A DNA stretch of 35,911 nt from Alcanivoracaceae bacterium (GTDB lineage Bacteria > Pseudomonadota > Gammaproteobacteria > Pseudomonadales > Alcanivoracaceae): NCBI GenBank assembly GCA_002706085.1, contig PAJO01000045.1, positions 1-35,911 of the forward strand. Reading direction: 5' to 3'. Made by a program: the position numbers and the translations under genes. A model generated the notes under the pieces. The model had not been told where the DNA came from, made no database searches, and saw only the letters and a program-made list of their open reading frames with translations. How positions within the stretch are numbered: the stretch's first letter is position 1; the number at the start of each line of letters is the position of its first letter. Positions 335 to 19,363 of the stretch are shown here, in pieces.

Positions 335-667
335 ATGGAATTCACGCTGCTGTTTCTGAAATTTTTTCTCAAGGCGCTGGCCTTGGGGGCACCGTTGCTG
401 GCGTTTTTCTTTCTGCTGATTGTACTGCTGGGGCAATGGGTGGGGCGGCGTGAAGGGTGGAGCCGTTTCGATGCGTTTTACTGGTCATTCATCACTGCGC
501 TGACAGTGGGCTATGGTGACTTTCGGCCCGCCAGCCGTCGCAGCAAATTGCTGGCACTGGCAACCGCCACAGTGGGGATCATGTTCAGTGGGGTGTTTGT
601 GGCGGTGACTGTCGCGGCAGCGACAGAAGCATTTCATCAGTACATGCCGAACTGGTCACCGCAATAA
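335..667 (+). CDS. Two-transmembrane K+ channel-like protein (Ion_trans_2)
   Basis: The 110-residue protein has a hydrophobic helix at about residues 15-37, a pore loop with the K+ selectivity filter TVGYGD at 57-62, and a second hydrophobic helix at about 72-96. This is the KcsA/Ion_trans_2 pore layout, with almost no cytoplasmic gating domain. It would sit in the inner membrane, presumably as a tetramer. The start is supported by GAGGA at 324-328, six bases before the ATG. It is monocistronic and ends just before a perfect 24-bp palindrome, converging on the SnoaL-like gene. Ion selectivity follows from the filter; what gates it is unknown. Confidence 0.88.
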   Translation: MEFTLLFLKFFLKALALGAPLLAFFFLLIVLLGQWVGRREGWSRFDAFYWSFITALTVGYGDFRPASRRSKLLALATATVGIMFSGVFVAVTVAAATEAFHQYMPNWSPQ

Positions 668-4492: not shown

Positions 4493-4959
4493 TGAGAAGA
4501 ACAATGCGATGGTGGATTCTGGTTTTATGCAGTCTCTCTGTCAGTGTGTACGCCGATGGGCCTGAGCCTCTGATCGAGCAATATGAAAATGCATTGCGGC
4601 AGCAGAGCAGCGCCAAACTGGAGGCGGTGCTGTCTGAAAAGCTGAGTGTTGAGGTAACCCTGCTGATGGCGGATGAAGATCCCGTTACGGTGTCGCTGAG
4701 TCGTGATGAATTCTTGCAGCAGCAGCGGGCGTTATGGTTGTTTTCGACAGAGCATGCGTTTGATTTTTCCAGGCCAGTCGTGAAACGGGTGAACCAGGAA
4801 AGCGGCCGGCAGCGATGGGAGGTCACGCTTGAGCAGCAGGAACGTTATGCCCTGTTCCGGAGTACGCTGAAACGAGACAACCAGATCACCCTGATCGTCG
4901 AGCAGCATGATGATGTACAGCGCATTTCCGCAATGAACGTGGTGACGCGGGAGTGGTAG
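4492..4959 (+). CDS. Small exported protein of unknown function
   Basis: The 155-residue protein starts within the stop codon of the solute-binding-like gene (TGATG), so the pair are translationally coupled. Residues 1-20 look like a signal peptide, with cleavage probably after VSVYA. The mature part is charged, with a helix (IEQYENALRQQSSAKLEAVL) followed by alternating strands, compatible with an NTF2-like fold; that is only a resemblance. I recognise no catalytic motif. It ends 72 bp upstream of creB on the same strand, so it may be co-expressed with the Cre genes. Confidence 0.65.
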   Translation: MRRTMRWWILVLCSLSVSVYADGPEPLIEQYENALRQQSSAKLEAVLSEKLSVEVTLLMADEDPVTVSLSRDEFLQQQRALWLFSTEHAFDFSRPVVKRVNQESGRQRWEVTLEQQERYALFRSTLKRDNQITLIVEQHDDVQRISAMNVVTREW

Positions 4960-5031
4960 TGCTACAGGGAAAGGGCGTTTTTCAAAGGCTCCCTGTTATC
5001 ATGCCGATATGACCGACCAGGATGTGCGCCC

Positions 5032-5697
5032 GTGGCCCGAATATTGATTGTTGATGATGAACCCCGTATCGCCGAACCCTTGATCTATGCGTTGGAGCGT
5101 GAGCATTTCTCGGTGGCGCACGTGGCCTTGGGTGAGGCGGCGCTGGCTTGTCTGGCCCATGACAATGTGGACCTGGTGATCCTGGATGTGGGCTTGCCGG
5201 ATATCAATGGTTTTGAGGTGCTCAAGCGGCTGCGCCAGAATAATGAGGTTCCGGTGCTGTTCCTGACGGCTCGTCAGGATGAAGTGGACCGTATTCTGGG
5301 GTTGGAGCTGGGCGGCGATGATTACGTCACCAAACCATTCAGTCCCCGTGAAGTGGTGGCACGGGTGCGTGCCATTCTCAAGCGTCAGGGGGGCAACGGT
5401 TCCCGTTCAGCCGTGCCACTCTGGCAACTGGATGAAGCCGGTGCCCGTATTCTCTGCAAGGGCGAGCCGTTATCGTTAACCCGTTCCGAATTTTTGATTT
5501 TGGCGGCCCTGCTACGTCACCCCGGCCAGGTCTTCAGTCGCGCACAGTTGCTGGATATCTGTGATAGCGACGAGGACAGTTTTGAACGCAGTGTCGATAC
5601 CCATATCAAGACACTGCGCGCCAAGCTTCGGCCCTTGCAGGCGGATAGCCTGCTGGCCACCCGGCGGGGCCTGGGGTACTACCTGGAGTCAGCGTGA
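5032..5697 (+). CDS. creB: CreB-type response regulator (OmpR/PhoB family)
   Basis: The 221-residue protein has a receiver domain (acidic pocket D8/D9, phospho-acceptor D52 in LVILDVGLPD, Lys101 in YVTKPF) and a winged-helix DNA-binding domain (about 125-220, with SLTRSEFLILAALLRHPGQVFSRAQLL). Pairing with a CreC-like kinase and creD identifies it as CreB, a regulator linked to envelope stress, carbon metabolism and, in aeromonads and pseudomonads, beta-lactam response. No in-frame ATG is available upstream, so the GTG at 5032 is taken. Its end overlaps creC by four bases (GTGA). Confidence 0.9.
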   Translation: MARILIVDDEPRIAEPLIYALEREHFSVAHVALGEAALACLAHDNVDLVILDVGLPDINGFEVLKRLRQNNEVPVLFLTARQDEVDRILGLELGGDDYVTKPFSPREVVARVRAILKRQGGNGSRSAVPLWQLDEAGARILCKGEPLSLTRSEFLILAALLRHPGQVFSRAQLLDICDSDEDSFERSVDTHIKTLRAKLRPLQADSLLATRRGLGYYLESA

Positions 5698-7100
5698 AAC
5701 TCGGCCAGCGGATTCTGCTGTTTTATTTTTTTATCCTGGGGTTGCTGGGGTGGTTTGTGCTGGACCTGGTATTCGACCGGGTCAAGCCGCTGGTGCGGCA
5801 GTCTGCGGAAGAAACTCTGGTCGACGCGGCCAACTTGTTGGCAGAAATGGTCGCGGTGGAAGCCAAAGACGGTGTGGTGGTGGTTACCCCGCAATTACGT
5901 GAGGCCCTGAACCGATACGCAGGGCGTACCCCGGATGCCGATATCTGGGGCATGAAGAAAGTGGCCATTCATACTCATGTCTATATCACCAGCCCGGAGG
6001 GCATCGTGTTGTTCGATTCCCGTGGCCGGGATGAAGGGCAGGATTTTTCCCTCTGGAATGATGTGTATCTGACCTTGCAGGGGCGCTACGGTGCGCGCAC
6101 TACTCGCACTGATCCCGCCGATCCTTCGACCTCGGTCATGTATGTGGCGGCGCCGATTCGTCATGAGGGGCAGCTGATCGGTGTGATCAGCCTTGGCAAG
6201 CCAGGCCGTTCGCTGTCACCGTTTGTGGACCGCGCGGAGCGCGCATTGTTGATCTATGGCGGTAGCGTGCTGCTGTTGTGTTTGCTGCTCGGTGGCGTGC
6301 TGGCTTTCTGGTTGAGTCGTCGGGTTAACCTTTTGCGCCATTATGCCGAGGCGGTGGCCAGCGGCGAACGGGTTGCGCCGCCACAGTTGAAGGGCAAGGA
6401 TGAAATACGGGCACTGGCGGAATCGGTCACCGCCATGCGCCGGCGGCTGGAAGATCGTGCCCGGCTGGAAGACAACGTCACTCTGCTTACCCATGAAATG
6501 AAAAGCCCGCTGGCGGCCATTCGTGGTGCCGGTGAAATCCTCGCCGATGAAGTTCGCGACCCGGCCCTGCAGCGGTTCACCGAAAATGTGGTGCATGAAA
6601 GCGTGCGGCTCAGTGATCTGCTGGACCGCTTGCTGGCCATGGCACGTTTGGAAAAACTGGAAAGCCTGCCGGCACAACGTGCGCGGGTGGCGGTAGCCAG
6701 TCTGGTCGCCGACTGGGAGGCCAGCCGATATGCGCTGCTGGCCGAAAAATCGGTGTCGGTGGCGGTGGAGGATCAGGTGATAAACGTGGAACCCGAAACC
6801 TTTCAGCTGGCCCTGTTCAATCTGCTCGACAATGCGCTGCGCTTTGCCGAGCCGAATAGCGTGATACGGGTACATGGCGATGGCCATCAGCTCCGCGTTG
6901 AAAACCGCGGGCCGGCGATTCCGGATTACGCGCTTTCCCGCGTCACTGAACGTTTCTATTCGCTACCCGCGCCGGGTCAGGAAAAGAGTTCCGGACTTGG
7001 CCTGGCCATGGTGCAGGAGATTGTCCAACTGCATGGCGGCGAACTCATCGTGGAGAACACGGACGCCGGCGTGGCAGTAACCCTGATTCTCGCCCCGTAG
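5694..7100 (+). CDS. creC: CreC-type sensor histidine kinase
   Basis: The 468-residue membrane kinase has TM1 at about 7-27, a periplasmic sensor of about 155 residues, TM2 at about 184-207, then HAMP, HisKA and HATPase domains. The phospho-acceptor is His267 in LTHEMKSPLAAIRGAGE, a hallmark of CreC. The N box is FNLLDNALRFAEP, and a G box (SSGLGLAMVQEI) is also present. It should phosphorylate CreB. The GTG start overlaps the creB stop, so translation is coupled. Its TAG stop lies inside a GTAGGAGCG repeat, so the C-terminus may have been set by repeat insertion. No creA-like gene is present upstream. Confidence 0.92.
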   Translation: MKLGQRILLFYFFILGLLGWFVLDLVFDRVKPLVRQSAEETLVDAANLLAEMVAVEAKDGVVVVTPQLREALNRYAGRTPDADIWGMKKVAIHTHVYITSPEGIVLFDSRGRDEGQDFSLWNDVYLTLQGRYGARTTRTDPADPSTSVMYVAAPIRHEGQLIGVISLGKPGRSLSPFVDRAERALLIYGGSVLLLCLLLGGVLAFWLSRRVNLLRHYAEAVASGERVAPPQLKGKDEIRALAESVTAMRRRLEDRARLEDNVTLLTHEMKSPLAAIRGAGEILADEVRDPALQRFTENVVHESVRLSDLLDRLLAMARLEKLESLPAQRARVAVASLVADWEASRYALLAEKSVSVAVEDQVINVEPETFQLALFNLLDNALRFAEPNSVIRVHGDGHQLRVENRGPAIPDYALSRVTERFYSLPAPGQEKSSGLGLAMVQEIVQLHGGELIVENTDAGVAVTLILAP

Positions 7101-7123
7101 GAGCGTCGCTCGCGGCGCGATGT
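7097..7123. repeat. REP-like element supplying the creC stop codon
   Basis: The repeat starts GTAGGAGCG, with a GCGTCGC...GCGGCGC imperfect stem following. The TAG inside its first five bases is the in-frame stop of creC. It shares its first nine bases with elements at 198, 15332 and 20709. Confidence 0.7.
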
Positions 7124-7157
7124 CGGGGTTGTGTATCTTTTAGTTTTCAGCCGCCTT

Positions 7158-7175
7158 CCCCACACAATCCCCACA
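7158..7175. promoter_or_regulatory. Candidate CreB box upstream of creD
   Basis: CCCCACA occurs twice in direct orientation with a period of exactly 11 bases, about 59 bp before the creD start. Known CreB tags are TTCAC direct repeats with the same 11-base period, so the geometry fits although the bases differ. Inferred by eye. Confidence 0.35.
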
Positions 7176-7233
7176 TAACCCTCAAGTGTGCCGCTCAGAC
7201 TGCCCTCTGATATTGACTGTGAGGGCAAGGGCT

Positions 7234-8592
7234 ATGCGACCTAATTTGCTAATGAAGATGCTGACCATCGGCGGGCTGATGCTGGTGCTGGTGGTACCGT
7301 TGATGATGATTCAGGGAAAGATTATTGAGCGGGGCAATGAAGCTCATCGTGTCACCGAGCAGATTGCCCGGCAGGTCAGTGGAGAGCAACAGATCAGTGG
7401 GCCACTGATCGTGTCTTCACGCACTGTAAGAGAGTGGGAAGAAAAACCGGGTTGCGAAAGTCGCCACTGCGCGGTGCTGAAACACGCGACCCGGTTGGAC
7501 AGTCTGATTCCCGACACGCTGTCGCTGGATGGCGAGTTGCAATCCGAAATGCGCTATCGGGGTATTTACGGCGTCCCGGTGTATCGCAGTCTGTTGCATT
7601 TGGAAGCGGTGTTTCCCGCTGACTGGCGTGAGGTAAAGCGGCCAGAAGAGGTGGTGAAATCCGATGCCCCTCTGCTGCTATTTCAGATTCGTGATTTGCG
7701 CGGCTTGGTAGAGCGGCCGCAGGTGATGGTCAACGACGTGCCGTTGCCACTGGTGGAGGCGGAGCAACTGCCTCGCGGTGTTGGCAGCAACGCCATGGCG
7801 GTACGCCTGCCAGATACCCTGCAAGGGGCGTTTACCGTCAAGATTCGCCTGAACCTGAACGGCACCCAGGCATTTGGCATGTTACCGCTGGCCAAGGAAA
7901 CCCGCATGGCACTGCGTTCCGACTGGCCCCACCCCAGCTTTGAAGGGCTGGTGTTGCCGGTGGAGCGTGAGATCAATAGCAAGGGCTTCACCAGCCAATG
8001 GCGCACCAACAGTCTGGCGGCGGCCAGTGCCATTCACTGCGCCCGGGGGGATGCGGCCTGTGGCGATGCGGATCAGGCATTGCGGGTTCGGCTGGTGCAA
8101 CCGGTTACCGGTTTACTCTCCAGTGAGCGGGCACTGAAATACAGTTTTCTGATCGTGGGTCTGGCGTTTGCCGCATTTTTTCTTTTTGAAGTGCTGCGTC
8201 GTTATCCCCTGCATGCCATGCAGTACCTGTTGGTGGGGTTGTCGTTGGCGATGTTCTACATGTTGCTGGTGGCGTTGAGTGAACACATCGATTTTGCGTT
8301 GGCATACCTGATCGCTGCGTTGGCCTGTTGCGGTTTGATCGGGGTTTACCTTATGGCGGTACTGCGTTCGTTCGCGGCGGGGTGGTCGTTTGCGGCGAGT
8401 TTACTGCTGGTGCAGGGGTTGATCTACGGCATCCTGATGGCCGAAGACTATGCCTTGTTGATGGGCGCGATGCTGTTGTTTGCCGCACTTTCCAGCGTCA
8501 TGTTGGTGACACGAAAACTGGATTGGTACAGCTTTGCTTCGGTGCGTAAAACGGGCCAGGAAAGTCTGTTGAAAGAGCGGGGCATGCAATGA
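7234..8592 (+). CDS. creD: CreD-family inner membrane protein
   Basis: The 452-residue protein matches the CreD/Cet family (about 450 residues in E. coli). It has one N-terminal membrane helix (about 10-28), a large periplasmic domain to about residue 300, and a block of five or six C-terminal helices starting at YSFLIVGLAFAAFFLFEVL. CreD is the principal CreBC output and is tied to envelope integrity. The ATG at 7234 follows a GAGG/AAGGG ribosome site; an upstream GTG at 7186 would prepend a non-signal-like stretch. The stop overlaps the next ORF by four bases (ATGA). Confidence 0.92.
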   Translation: MRPNLLMKMLTIGGLMLVLVVPLMMIQGKIIERGNEAHRVTEQIARQVSGEQQISGPLIVSSRTVREWEEKPGCESRHCAVLKHATRLDSLIPDTLSLDGELQSEMRYRGIYGVPVYRSLLHLEAVFPADWREVKRPEEVVKSDAPLLLFQIRDLRGLVERPQVMVNDVPLPLVEAEQLPRGVGSNAMAVRLPDTLQGAFTVKIRLNLNGTQAFGMLPLAKETRMALRSDWPHPSFEGLVLPVEREINSKGFTSQWRTNSLAAASAIHCARGDAACGDADQALRVRLVQPVTGLLSSERALKYSFLIVGLAFAAFFLFEVLRRYPLHAMQYLLVGLSLAMFYMLLVALSEHIDFALAYLIAALACCGLIGVYLMAVLRSFAAGWSFAASLLLVQGLIYGILMAEDYALLMGAMLLFAALSSVMLVTRKLDWYSFASVRKTGQESLLKERGMQ

Positions 8593-16785: not shown

Positions 16786-17265
16786 TCACCTTGGTGGTGT
16801 GTAGGGTATTACCTTGATCAGCAGCGAAGGTTCCTGTTGCTGATGATCCGCCCTCACGCAACGCAATTCAAAGAGGCCGGCTACATCAAAGCGCCAGGGC
16901 AGGCTCACGGTGCTGCCGGGCTCACTCAGGCGGGTGTTGGGGTAATCCTTGCGGAGATCCGGCATCAACCGGTGGATCAGGTTCTGGTCGCGCAGGGCGG
17001 TGTTGTCGCCAAGTGCAAACAGATGCCAGTCATCACTGTGGTTGGTGAGGGTGAGTGCCCGCGAGGCGCCCTGTGGGAATGACAGTTGTGCTGGCTGCCA
17101 GCGTTTGCTGAACAGCACAGGGGTGGCTGTCAGTTGTCCGGGTTCACGCAGGGCGGTGCCGGCGGCCATGGGGATCTCGTCTGGCAGAATGCCATGCCCC
17201 CAGCTACCCTGTGCCCACAAAAACGTGGTCAGCGCGACAAGTGCTCGTACCCGCAAAACTGTCAT
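16786..17265 (-). CDS. Cupredoxin-like exported protein lacking the Met ligand
   Basis: The 159-residue protein has a signal peptide (cleavage near SWGHG, about residue 23) and a plastocyanin-like fold. The pattern DWHLFALGDN...LFELRCVRADHQ follows CopI-type cupredoxins, giving His (about 81), Cys (about 136) and His (about 141) as ligand candidates. The usual downstream Met of the blue-copper site is absent, replaced by QQQEPSLL. Copper binding is therefore uncertain. Its start lies 23 bp from the divergent channel gene; no clear Shine-Dalgarno stands before the ATG. Confidence 0.65.
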   Translation of the reverse strand: MTVLRVRALVALTTFLWAQGSWGHGILPDEIPMAAGTALREPGQLTATPVLFSKRWQPAQLSFPQGASRALTLTNHSDDWHLFALGDNTALRDQNLIHRLMPDLRKDYPNTRLSEPGSTVSLPWRFDVAGLFELRCVRADHQQQEPSLLIKVIPYTPPR

Positions 17266-17288
17266 CCAAAATTGATCCAGGAGGGATA

Positions 17289-18350
17289 ATGTCGCTCAGA
17301 ATCCGTGTTTTGGCCACCAGCTTGCTGTTGGCCATGGTGTCGCTGGTGCAAGCTGCACCCCTAACGGTAGCGGTAAAAGCCTCTCCGCCCTTCAGCTACC
17401 AAAGTGGTGATCGCTGGGATGGCATCAGCGTGGAGCTATGGGAGATGGCCGCTGAACGGGCCGGACTGGAGTATCGCTATCGCCCTTATCGCACCGTGAA
17501 TGAGATGCTGGAAGCGGTGGAGTTCGGGCAGGCAGATGTGGCCATTGGAGCCATCAGCGTAACGGCGGATCGTGAGCGGCGGCTGGATTTTTCCCAGCCC
17601 ATGTATCGTGGCGGCTTGGGGATTGCGACCCGCAGTGAGCCCAGCGGCTGGCTGGTTACCCTGCGGAGTCTCTTTACCTGGAAGTTCTTTTCGGCGGTGC
17701 TGGCGCTTGGCCTGGTGCTGTTAATTGTCGGTGTGTTGATCTGGCTGTTCGAACGTCGCCGCAACCCGGATCAGTTTGGGGGCTCGGTAAGCGAAGGCAT
17801 CGGCAGTGGTTTCTGGTGGTCCGCCGTCACCATGACCACGGTTGGCTATGGGGACAAGGCTCCCGTGAGTCCGGCTGGGCGGGTATTGGGGTTGGTCTGG
17901 ATGTTCGCCAGCATCATTACCATTTCCGGTTTCACCGCGGCGATCGCCTCCAGCGTTACCGTCAACAAGCTGCAAACCCGCATCAGTGGCGTATCGGATT
18001 TGCCCCACGTGAAGGTGGGCAGCGTGGCGAATACCAGTGGTGCCCAGTGGTTGGCGGCGCAGGGGATTCACTACAAACCCTACGACAATCTCAAGCAGGG
18101 TATGCGTGCGGTGGCACTGGGCGAGATTGATGCCATGGTCTCTGATGCGCCCGTCATGCGTTACATGCTGCGTGATCGTGATGACAAGAGTTTGTTGGTG
18201 TTGCCCAATCTGATTCGTGACGAAAGTTATGCCTTTGCGGTCGCCAATGAAAGTCCGTTACAGGAGCCCGTGAACCTGGCCATGCTGAATGTGCTGCCGA
18301 CGGAAGAGTGGCGCATGATTTTGAATCGCTATTTGGGGCGGGGCGAGTAG
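17289..18350 (+). CDS. GluR0-like ligand-gated potassium channel
   Basis: The 353-residue protein has a signal peptide (about 1-22), then an SBP_bac_3 ligand lobe S1 (about 24-125, Arg95 in TADRERRLDFSQPMY as candidate ligand-carboxylate contact). TM1 is at about 133-153, a pore helix carries the K+ filter TVGYGD at 184-189, TM2 is at about 198-222, and lobe S2 follows (about 232-345, Asp286 as candidate amino-group contact). This is the architecture of prokaryotic glutamate receptors such as Synechocystis GluR0: an amino-acid-gated K+ channel lacking the M3/M4 and N-terminal domains of animal receptors. AGGAGG precedes the ATG at 17289. It is divergent from the cupredoxin gene. Confidence 0.92.
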   Translation: MSLRIRVLATSLLLAMVSLVQAAPLTVAVKASPPFSYQSGDRWDGISVELWEMAAERAGLEYRYRPYRTVNEMLEAVEFGQADVAIGAISVTADRERRLDFSQPMYRGGLGIATRSEPSGWLVTLRSLFTWKFFSAVLALGLVLLIVGVLIWLFERRRNPDQFGGSVSEGIGSGFWWSAVTMTTVGYGDKAPVSPAGRVLGLVWMFASIITISGFTAAIASSVTVNKLQTRISGVSDLPHVKVGSVANTSGAQWLAAQGIHYKPYDNLKQGMRAVALGEIDAMVSDAPVMRYMLRDRDDKSLLVLPNLIRDESYAFAVANESPLQEPVNLAMLNVLPTEEWRMILNRYLGRGE

Positions 18351-18367: not shown

Positions 18368-18482
18368 CGAGTTTCGAGTTGCGAAAATCAAAAGCAAAGC
18401 CATTGCGTCTGCTATGGGCTGGGTTTTGCTCTTCGAAACTCGAAACTCGAAACTCGAAACTCGAAACTCGAAACTCGAAACT
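18368..18482. repeat. Heptamer tandem array with an inverted outlying copy
   Basis: CGAAACT is repeated seven times at 18434-18482, ending four bases before the thioesterase stop codon. About 56 bp to the left, CGAGTTTCGAG (18368-18378) is the reverse complement of the array, and the intervening arms (AAAGCAAAGCC and GGGTTTTGCT) are also roughly complementary. The whole could fold as one imperfect hairpin with one arm expanded by slippage. Confidence 0.9.
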
Positions 18483-18486
18483 CGCC

Positions 18487-18906
18487 CTAGGTCGTCAGAA
18501 TCGACTTGGTCACCGAGCCGGTAGCAATCAAACGTTCTTCACCGTCCTGGTTAACCGCGTAGGCTTCAGCACGCATCGCTGCCAGGGTGCGGCCAATACG
18601 ATCGGCCTTACCGCGCAGGATCACGCTTTCTCCTTTCCGGGCGGCGCGTAGCACACTATTGTGCGTTTCCACGGTCACAGGGGCCTGGTTGTCATCCAGC
18701 AACGGCACAGCCGCAAAGAAGCAGGCCACGTCCATCAGTGCATAGAGAATGCCGCCATGTAATGCGCCCAGCGGATTGGTGGTGAAATCATTCACCTGAA
18801 AGCGTAATTCACTGGTGCCTTCCCCGGCCTGCAACAGTTCCAGTTCACAGGCGCGGTGTAGAGGATGGGCAAGGACATCATCGCGGGTGACATCAAGACG
18901 GCTCAT
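18487..18906 (-). CDS. PaaI-family hotdog thioesterase
   Basis: The 139-residue protein is a single hotdog domain, with the PaaI signature NPLGALHGGILYALMDVACFF (catalytic-area His and Asp, about residues 52-63) and later THNSVLRAARKGESVIL. Such enzymes hydrolyse acyl- or aryl-CoA esters in the cytoplasm; the substrate is not evident. The ATG at 18906 is chosen because it starts the conserved domain; an upstream extension to 19092 has no family resemblance. The 7-bp tandem array lies at its 3' end. It is divergent from the metal-efflux operon. Confidence 0.85.
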   Translation of the reverse strand: MSRLDVTRDDVLAHPLHRACELELLQAGEGTSELRFQVNDFTTNPLGALHGGILYALMDVACFFAAVPLLDDNQAPVTVETHNSVLRAARKGESVILRGKADRIGRTLAAMRAEAYAVNQDGEERLIATGSVTKSILTT

Positions 18907-19051
18907 GGGAGATCTCTTTCTTTCGGTAGCACGAAACGGCTGACACTCTGCCTGCACTCCGCTGTGCTGTGAATGACCGCTGGGAACCTCTTCGCTTGAC
19001 TTGGGTCTCAATGATGTCGAGGATAGCCCCTCACCCCACATTGGCGAATCC

Positions 19052-19363
19052 ATGAAATCACTGGTCTGGACATTGCTGCTGATCATCTGCACCCATGTGC
19101 TGGTGCTCGATGCCGTGCATCATGAACATGATGCCGGGGCAGACTATGCCCAGTCGCTGAGTGATGACAGCCACCAGCAGGAGCGCGTCCAACTGGATGT
19201 GCTGGACCAGGGCGCAGAGCACTGCTGCCAGTGCCACGGCTTCATGGCTGGTGTGGATTGCCCGCCTGCACGACAGCCAGCGCCAGTCACCGCGCTGCTC
19301 GGCTGGCGCCCGGATCTTCCCGACGCCCCCCCGGAATCCCCGTTCCGCCCTCCTATCGCCTGA
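19052..19363 (+). CDS. Small His/Cys-rich exported protein heading the metal-efflux operon (CzcI-like)
   Basis: The 103-residue protein has an N-terminal hydrophobic segment (about 4-20) and then metal-ligand-rich motifs HHEHD and CCQCHG, with a Pro-rich tail. Its position, 87 bp before czcC, matches small CzcI/DUF2946-type proteins found at the start of Czc and Cop operons. A metal-sensing or chaperone role is inferred from position and ligands only. The start is the ATG beginning MKSLVW; an in-frame ATG at 19001 gives a non-signal-like extension. Upstream, TTGACT (18996-19001) could be a -35 element, but I cannot fix a -10 element. Confidence 0.65.
   Translation: MKSLVWTLLLIICTHVLVLDAVHHEHDAGADYAQSLSDDSHQQERVQLDVLDQGAEHCCQCHGFMAGVDCPPARQPAPVTALLGWRPDLPDAPPESPFRPPIA

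What the first reader, a model, noticed from the sequence alone, without database searches (positions are those of the whole stretch)
17289..18350. Prokaryotic ionotropic glutamate receptor (GluR0-like)
The sequence shows S1 lobe - TM1 - pore with TVGYGD - TM2 - S2 lobe in one 353-residue protein. This architecture is known from Synechocystis GluR0 but rarely studied in marine gammaproteobacteria. It implies amino-acid or small-ligand control of membrane potential.
Basis: partly seen in the sequence, partly recalled or inferred. Interest (0 to 1): 0.72.

Follow-up and report, generated by a model that had tools for sequence, protein, structure and literature searches.

The report
GluR0-type amino-acid-gated potassium channel
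The gene most likely encodes a bacterial cousin of our brain's glutamate receptors, a small potassium channel that looks built to open when an amino acid binds outside the membrane; the kind is already known, so this copy is ordinary but correctly spotted.

Summary
Window 17289-18350 (+) encodes 353 residues: signal peptide, S1 lobe, TM1, pore loop with TTVGYGD, TM2, S2 lobe. Pfam finds a split SBP_bac_3, Lig_chan and Ion_trans_2, all above cut-off. The best solved chain is a bacterial glutamate receptor domain (2pyy); GluR0 ranks fifth. A profile of the family matches full-length animal receptors in one stretch. dN/dS is 0.03-0.12, and 16 of 17 genomes of the genus (Alcanivorax) carry the gene. 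It meets the sequence criteria of 'Group 1' prokaryotic glutamate receptors, published in 2010: a new member of a known kind. K+ flux, ligand and tetramer are untested; the structure predictor was busy at all 18 tries. Two side leads: position 285, beside the ligand Asp, is small in most Alcanivorax rows but Tyr in 64 of 74 others. In 7 of 12 Marinobacter loci the channel follows a MltF-type lytic transglycosylase gene; in the 5 genomes tested this is a second MltF copy.

The parts
17279..17284 (+). AGGAGG ribosome-binding site
   Evidence: Sequence
17289..18350 (+). GluR0-type ionotropic glutamate receptor gene, 353 aa plus stop
17289..17354 (+). Signal peptide, residues 1-22
   Evidence: Hydropathy peak; weakly conserved (dN/dS 0.22-0.86 in the 10 of 11 pairs with a value); cleavage site by eye, no predictor run
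17358..17648 (+). S1 lobe of the ligand-binding domain, about residues 24-120, with R95 (17571-17573)
17685..17747 (+). TM1 (M1), about residues 133-153
   Evidence: Hydropathy
17802..17864 (+). Pore loop, residues 172-192; K+ filter TVGYGD at 17838-17855
   Evidence: (Ion_trans_2)
17883..17957 (+). TM2 (M3), about residues 199-223, ending in an SGFTAAIAS stretch that aligns with SSYTASLTS of plant GLR3.4
17970..18338 (+). S2 lobe, residues 228-350, with T249/S250 and D286 (18144-18146)

Best explanation
The gene encodes a subunit of a GluR0-type (prokaryotic Group 1) ionotropic glutamate receptor in the inner membrane of an Alcanivorax species. Shown by sequence: the order leader - S1 - TM1 - K+-type pore loop - TM2 - S2, the two ligand anchors, and selective constraint. 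Inferred from GluR0 and animal receptors: four subunits assemble with the S1/S2 clamshell in the periplasm and the pore inverted relative to KcsA. An L-amino acid is held by R95 (alpha-carboxylate) and D286 (alpha-amino), with S90, T249 and S250 close by. Closure of the clamshell pulls TM2 open and lets K+ pass. In the cell this would couple amino acids in the periplasm to K+ flux, turgor and membrane potential. Glutamate itself is only one candidate ligand (my guess about 0.4); some amino acid, about 0.8.
For: Pfam SBP_bac_3, Lig_chan and Ion_trans_2 above cut-off. Best solved chain 2pyy (bacterial iGluR homologue, E 9e-29); plant GLR3.4 ranks fourth, GluR0 1iit/1ii5 fifth (E 2.7e-18), then NMDA and other receptors. 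The profile of 81 rows matches GluA2 chains in a single stretch, profile positions 23-344 at best (E 8.5e-36 to about 3e-34). R95 and D286 in 81 of 81 rows, S/T at 249 in 80 of 81. M1-P linker holds more Lys/Arg than the pre-TM1 flank in 67 of 81 rows and than the post-TM2 flank in 77 of 81. dN/dS 0.03-0.12 over residues 24-350 against 11 orthologues. GluR0 itself restores K+-limited growth of E. coli LB2003 and has both ends outside by PhoA fusions, some of them not significant (PMC13099474).
Against: No structure model could be made (18 tries of structure prediction, all 'busy'), so fold, pocket and tetramer are unchecked. K+ selectivity rests on the filter motif alone. In the profile search the top chain is a binding domain of an ABC transporter (6h30, E 7.5e-54), just above 2pyy, so the lobes alone do not single out receptors. 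Net charge does not follow the inverted topology. The TM2 'SYTANLAAF-like' stretch is weak evidence, because ordinary K+ channels among the low Lig_chan hits read SLVTANISAF (L052). S285 differs from the Tyr of 64 of 74 rows outside the Alcanivorax clade, so the ligand may not be glutamate. The neighbouring genes scanned name no ligand or pathway.
Confidence: 0.87

Rival explanations
1. A substrate-binding component of an amino-acid ABC transporter, as public annotation suggests ('transporter substrate-binding domain-containing protein').
For: The lobes are SBP_bac_3; 12 of the 15 plasmid relatives listed carry that label; the top chain of the profile search is an ABC-transporter binding domain.
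Against: Two TM helices and a K+-filter pore loop are inserted between the lobes; Lig_chan and Ion_trans_2 are above cut-off. No ABC permease or ATPase appeared among the window neighbours scanned (not every ORF of the window was scanned).
Confidence: 0.02
2. A K+ channel whose lobes bind something other than an amino acid, or nothing, so that it is leaky or gated by tension or ionic strength.
For: GluR0 acts in KCl upshock without added glutamate, and its authors suggest a possible tension response (PMC13099474). Position 285 is atypical in this genus.
Against: Both amino-acid anchors stand in 81 of 81 rows. Both lobes are under purifying selection.
Confidence: 0.1
3. A degenerate or unused gene.
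For: One genus copy (L019, genome G005, a draft of about 90 contigs) is frameshifted near codon 45, and the genome G016 lacks the gene.
Against: The window copy is intact, with dN/dS 0.03-0.12; 16 of 17 genus genomes carry the gene, the frameshifted copy included.
Confidence: 0.01

Closest known systems
GluR0 (Slr1257, Synechocystis; PDB 1ii5, 1iit, 1iiw)
   Same: S1-TM1-pore-TM2-S2 order (GluR0's from PMC13099474) and K+ filter; the Arg, Thr pair and Asp of GluR0 align with R95, T249/S250 and D286
   Different: Lower score than NpGluR's lobes (69.5 against 104 bits); the family lacks two residues that GluR0 has after the ligand Arg; S285 where GluR0 has Phe
Prokaryotic 'Group 1' glutamate receptors of Ger et al. 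2010 (PMC2950845)
   Same: S1/S2 flanking two TMs and a pore loop, K+ filter, conserved Arg and Asp; a signal peptide, which 10 of their 12 have
   Different: Another species; the text does not name Alcanivorax. Some of their 12 accessions are, I believe, from marine gammaproteobacteria (recalled, not looked up)
NpGluR ligand-binding domain (PDB 2pyy; organism Nostoc punctiforme recalled)
   Same: Best solved match, over both lobes
   Different: I believe NpGluR belongs to Group 2, without a K+ filter (recalled, not tested)
KcsA-like 2TM K+ channels
   Same: TVGYGD pore between two TMs
   Different: Membrane orientation inferred to be opposite; ligand lobes added

Membership tests
GluR0-type / Group 1 prokaryotic iGluR | S1 and S2 lobes flanking two TMs and a pore loop in one chain | tested here: met
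GluR0-type / Group 1 prokaryotic iGluR | K+ channel selectivity filter | tested here: met
   TTVGYGD at 183-189; 12 of 12 genus rows. In the 80 named relatives it was favoured by construction, since TTVGYGDK and [FL]WW[SA]AVTM were the search seeds
GluR0-type / Group 1 prokaryotic iGluR | Arg in S1 and Asp in S2 that hold the amino acid | tested here: met
   R95 and D286 align with GluR0; 81 of 81 rows
GluR0-type / Group 1 prokaryotic iGluR | Signal peptide placing the N-terminus outside | tested here: met
   Hydrophobic N-terminus, cleavage site judged by eye; no dedicated predictor was run
GluR0-type / Group 1 prokaryotic iGluR | Topology inverted relative to KcsA | tested here: inconclusive
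   Lys/Arg count agrees in 67 and 77 of 81 rows, but mean net charge does not (+0.72, +0.36, -1.04 for pre-TM1, linker, post-TM2)
GluR0-type / Group 1 prokaryotic iGluR | Receptor fold and tetramer | not tested
   Structure prediction busy at all 18 tries
GluR0-type / Group 1 prokaryotic iGluR | Amino-acid-gated K+ current | not testable with these tools
   Needs a bench assay

The most novel reading that the evidence does not exclude
Some K+-type bacterial glutamate receptors are sensors of cell-wall turnover: the pocket reads amino acids or peptides released from peptidoglycan and answers with K+ flux that trims turgor. In 7 of 12 Marinobacter loci the channel lies directly behind a MltF-type lytic transglycosylase gene (MltF identity checked in 5 of the 7) that carries an SBP_bac_3 domain in the one copy scanned for it (L090); in L091 the two genes overlap by ATGA. 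In the 5 such genomes tested this is a second MltF copy, apart from a better-scoring one elsewhere, and the 2 Marinobacter genomes tested without the pair have one copy. The Alcanivorax member, with its opened position 285, could read a related but different ligand. For the window itself there is no such neighbour.
Probability: 0.08. Interest if true: 0.65.

Novelty: new member of a known kind. Interest (0 to 1): 0.25.

Why it matters
K+-type glutamate receptors are presumed forerunners of synaptic receptors, yet Zhang et al. 2026 call their GluR0 work the first direct evidence of a role for a prokaryotic one (PMC13099474). A family with relatives in culturable Alcanivorax, Marinobacter and Pseudomonas species, hidden under a transporter label in 12 of the 15 plasmid records listed, offers other hosts than cyanobacteria in which to ask what bacteria use it for. 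A member of the genus that lacks the gene (G016) is a natural comparison.

Tried and rejected
The one-stretch profile match to solved receptors stands in for it.

Neighbourhood as a clue to function: the ORF caller recovered the channel in 68 of 80 named loci and the window. Besides the channel, the largest cluster of neighbours is in 13 loci (Alteromonas, Marinobacter, Idiomarina-type) and lumps DEAD-box with RecQ helicases; of 13, only L123 has it within 120 bases upstream on the same strand. Every other cluster spans at most 8 loci. Recurrent close same-strand partners: MltF upstream in 7 Marinobacter loci; one cluster upstream in 4 Pseudomonas-type loci (thymidylate synthase in the one scanned); an ABC exporter cluster downstream in 3 Idiomarina loci (one scanned); one cluster downstream in 2 Pseudidiomarina loci. 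RND pump genes of the window type recur in 6 named loci (3 Alcanivorax, 2 Halopseudomonas, 1 Balneolales).

Empty site in G016: the window's thioesterase neighbour has no match there either, so the site was not located.

Phage or plasmid origin of the window gene: not supported. 3 phage records match 24% of the query at about 35% identity; 83 plasmid records match, all under 60%, the best listed 36%; the first viral scan found no relative, the second, with an alignment, four full-length ones at 27-28%.

The SYTANLAAF-like stretch as proof of receptor ancestry: dropped, because ordinary K+ channels carry a similar one.

GluR0's dimer residues (Q127, K354 in PMC13099474): Q127 probably corresponds to Q103, but the numbering rests on recall, so this was not used.

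No claim is made that such receptors of Gammaproteobacteria are absent from print. The search for Alcanivorax with glutamate receptor listed one paper, on aminoacylases; six other searches listed no title about gammaproteobacterial members, but some lists were capped and only titles and abstract starts were seen.

Full report
What is there. Window 17289-18350 (+) encodes 353 residues behind AGGAGG. Pfam gives SBP_bac_3 (74.6 bits, split over residues 25-350), Lig_chan (62.4, cut-off 30.8) and Ion_trans_2 (47.9, cut-off 22.5); Lig_chan-Glu_bd is below cut-off. All 10 NCBIfam matches are far below their cut-offs; they include amino-acid binding proteins and K+ channels. Hydropathy shows a leader, TM1 at 127-157 and TM2 at 199-225, with the pore loop between them.

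Comparison with solved structures. The best chains by sequence are 2pyy (bacterial iGluR homologue, 104 bits), 6h30 (binding domains of a glutamine ABC transporter), 4q0c (BvgS), 7lzh (plant GLR3.4), GluR0 (1iit/1ii5, 69.5 bits) and an NMDA receptor; 451 distinct sequences pass E 0.001, 60 shown. With the profile of 81 K-type rows (A3: the window protein and 80 named relatives), 6h30 comes first (E 7.5e-54), then 2pyy (6.8e-52). GluA2 chains match in one stretch, profile positions 23-344 at best (E 8.5e-36 to about 3e-34), and the printed GLR3.4 alignment runs from within S1 through the pore and S2, so lobes and pore are continuous. In the printed GluR0 alignment the ligand Arg, the Thr pair and the Asp fall on R95, T249/S250 and D286.

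Conservation. R95 and D286 are kept in 81 of 81 rows, 92 is T in 75, 249 is S or T in 80, but 250 is S or T in only 29. The filter is also 81 of 81, but it was a search seed. Position 285, next to the Asp, is S in 6, A in 4, F in 1 and G in 1 of 12 genus rows. In A3 the seven rows of the Alcanivorax clade have A 3, S 2, G 1, H 1; the other 74 have Tyr 64, His 6, Asn 3, Ser 1. The matching position is known to tune ligand choice in animal receptors (recalled), so a larger or different ligand side chain is plausible here. The M1-P linker carries more Lys/Arg than the flank before TM1 in 67 of 81 rows and than the flank after TM2 in 77 of 81, but mean net charge does not follow (+0.72, +0.36, -1.04 for pre-TM1, linker and post-TM2).

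Distribution. The genus is Alcanivorax by the titles of the closest named loci, several of which are on contigs of the same length as contigs of the genus genomes. In the family, Lig_chan rings over cut-off in 18 of 46 genomes: 16 of 17 of the genus (own and one frameshifted copy included), 2 of 13 of one sister genus, 0 of 16 of the others. The genus genome without it, G016, is on a contig of 3,120,143 bases, the size I recall for A. borkumensis SK2. In the class, 17 of 369 genomes ring over cut-off. By my reading of the translations, 11 of these, own copy included, are canonical K-type receptors, 2 have the filter with divergent lobes, 2 lack the filter, and 2 are ordinary K+ channels. By their titles, many of them metagenome bins, these span Gammaproteobacteria, Alphaproteobacteria, Planctomycetota, Verrucomicrobiota, Balneolota, Gemmatimonadota and others. 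The tree of 93 rows puts the window protein in a fully supported clade of 9 (Alcanivorax rows and one Pseudomonadales bin), next to Abyssibacter and Solimonas; the bootstrap had not settled and several branches are long.

Constraint. dN/dS over residues 24-350 is 0.03-0.12 against 11 orthologues, with dS above 1 in 10 of 11 pairs, so the ratio is rough. One genus copy is frameshifted in a draft of about 90 contigs.

Surroundings. In the window the gene stands alone between a divergent, weakly CopI-like gene (16786-17265, -; 20.8 bits against a cut-off of 280) and a convergent thioesterase gene (18487-19092, -), with RND efflux genes further out. Among 80 named loci, 23 have a same-strand gene ending within about 120 bases upstream and 18 one starting within about 120 bases downstream. 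The recurrent upstream partners are a MltF-type transglycosylase in 7 of 12 Marinobacter loci and a cluster with thymidylate synthase in 4 loci; downstream, an ABC exporter cluster in 3 Idiomarina loci and one cluster in 2 Pseudidiomarina loci. MltF identity was checked for 4 of the 7 and for a fifth (L105). In L091 the two genes overlap by ATGA. Of 7 Marinobacter genomes searched, the 5 with the pair have two MltF genes over cut-off (547-569 bits elsewhere, 470-481 beside the channel) and the 2 without have one.

Literature. Ger et al. 2010 (PMC2950845; parts 1-3 of 4 of the text read, and one term search) defined Group 1, K+-filter prokaryotic receptors, 12 sequences, with the ligand Arg and Asp totally conserved, and inferred transfer between cyanobacteria and proteobacteria. 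Zhang et al. 2026 (PMC13099474; parts 1-3 of 5 read) report K+-limited growth rescue in E. coli, inverted topology and a role in cell volume for GluR0. Passages of PMC3483616 and PMC6385376 describe the origin by fusion of a binding protein with an inverted K+ channel.

Verdict. The protein is a new member of a known kind. Its function as an amino-acid-gated K+ channel is strongly suggested and untested.

Noticed in passing
L153, L154 (= L156), L155 (IMG/VR contigs of 40, 119 and 211, and 264 kb), genes near 4866-6041: Four viral-labelled records, three distinct, encode full-length K+-filter glutamate-receptor-like channels, 27-28% identical to the window protein. In L153 and L154 a PspA/IM30-like gene lies upstream (31.6 and 26.7 bits, below the Pfam cut-off of 33.9), with a CesT_Tir_1 gene in L154. 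A CesT/Tir-PspA operon with a K+ channel of intracellular ligand sensing is published (PMC11237479, passages); a version that senses outside may be new. Whether the contigs are truly viral was not tested.
   Followed up: partly
L089, L090, L091, L105, L108, L115, L124 (Marinobacter): The channel gene follows a MltF-type lytic transglycosylase gene; in 5 of 5 genomes tested this is a second MltF copy.
   Followed up: partly
window 335-667 (+): A 110-residue protein with TVGYGD and two hydrophobic stretches (Ion_trans_2, 61.3 bits), a pore-only K+ channel of small size.
   Followed up: no
window 5694-8592 (+): CreC-type sensor kinase and CreD-type envelope protein, above NCBIfam cut-off.
   Followed up: no
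window, about 18430-18485: Short direct repeats of the type ctcgaaa just downstream of the channel gene.
   Followed up: no
G000:C11:51730-53604: In the window's own genome, a 711-residue frame with two stretches matching the MltF profile, below the MltF cut-off (304.8 against 354 bits), perhaps a variant with two binding domains.
   Followed up: no
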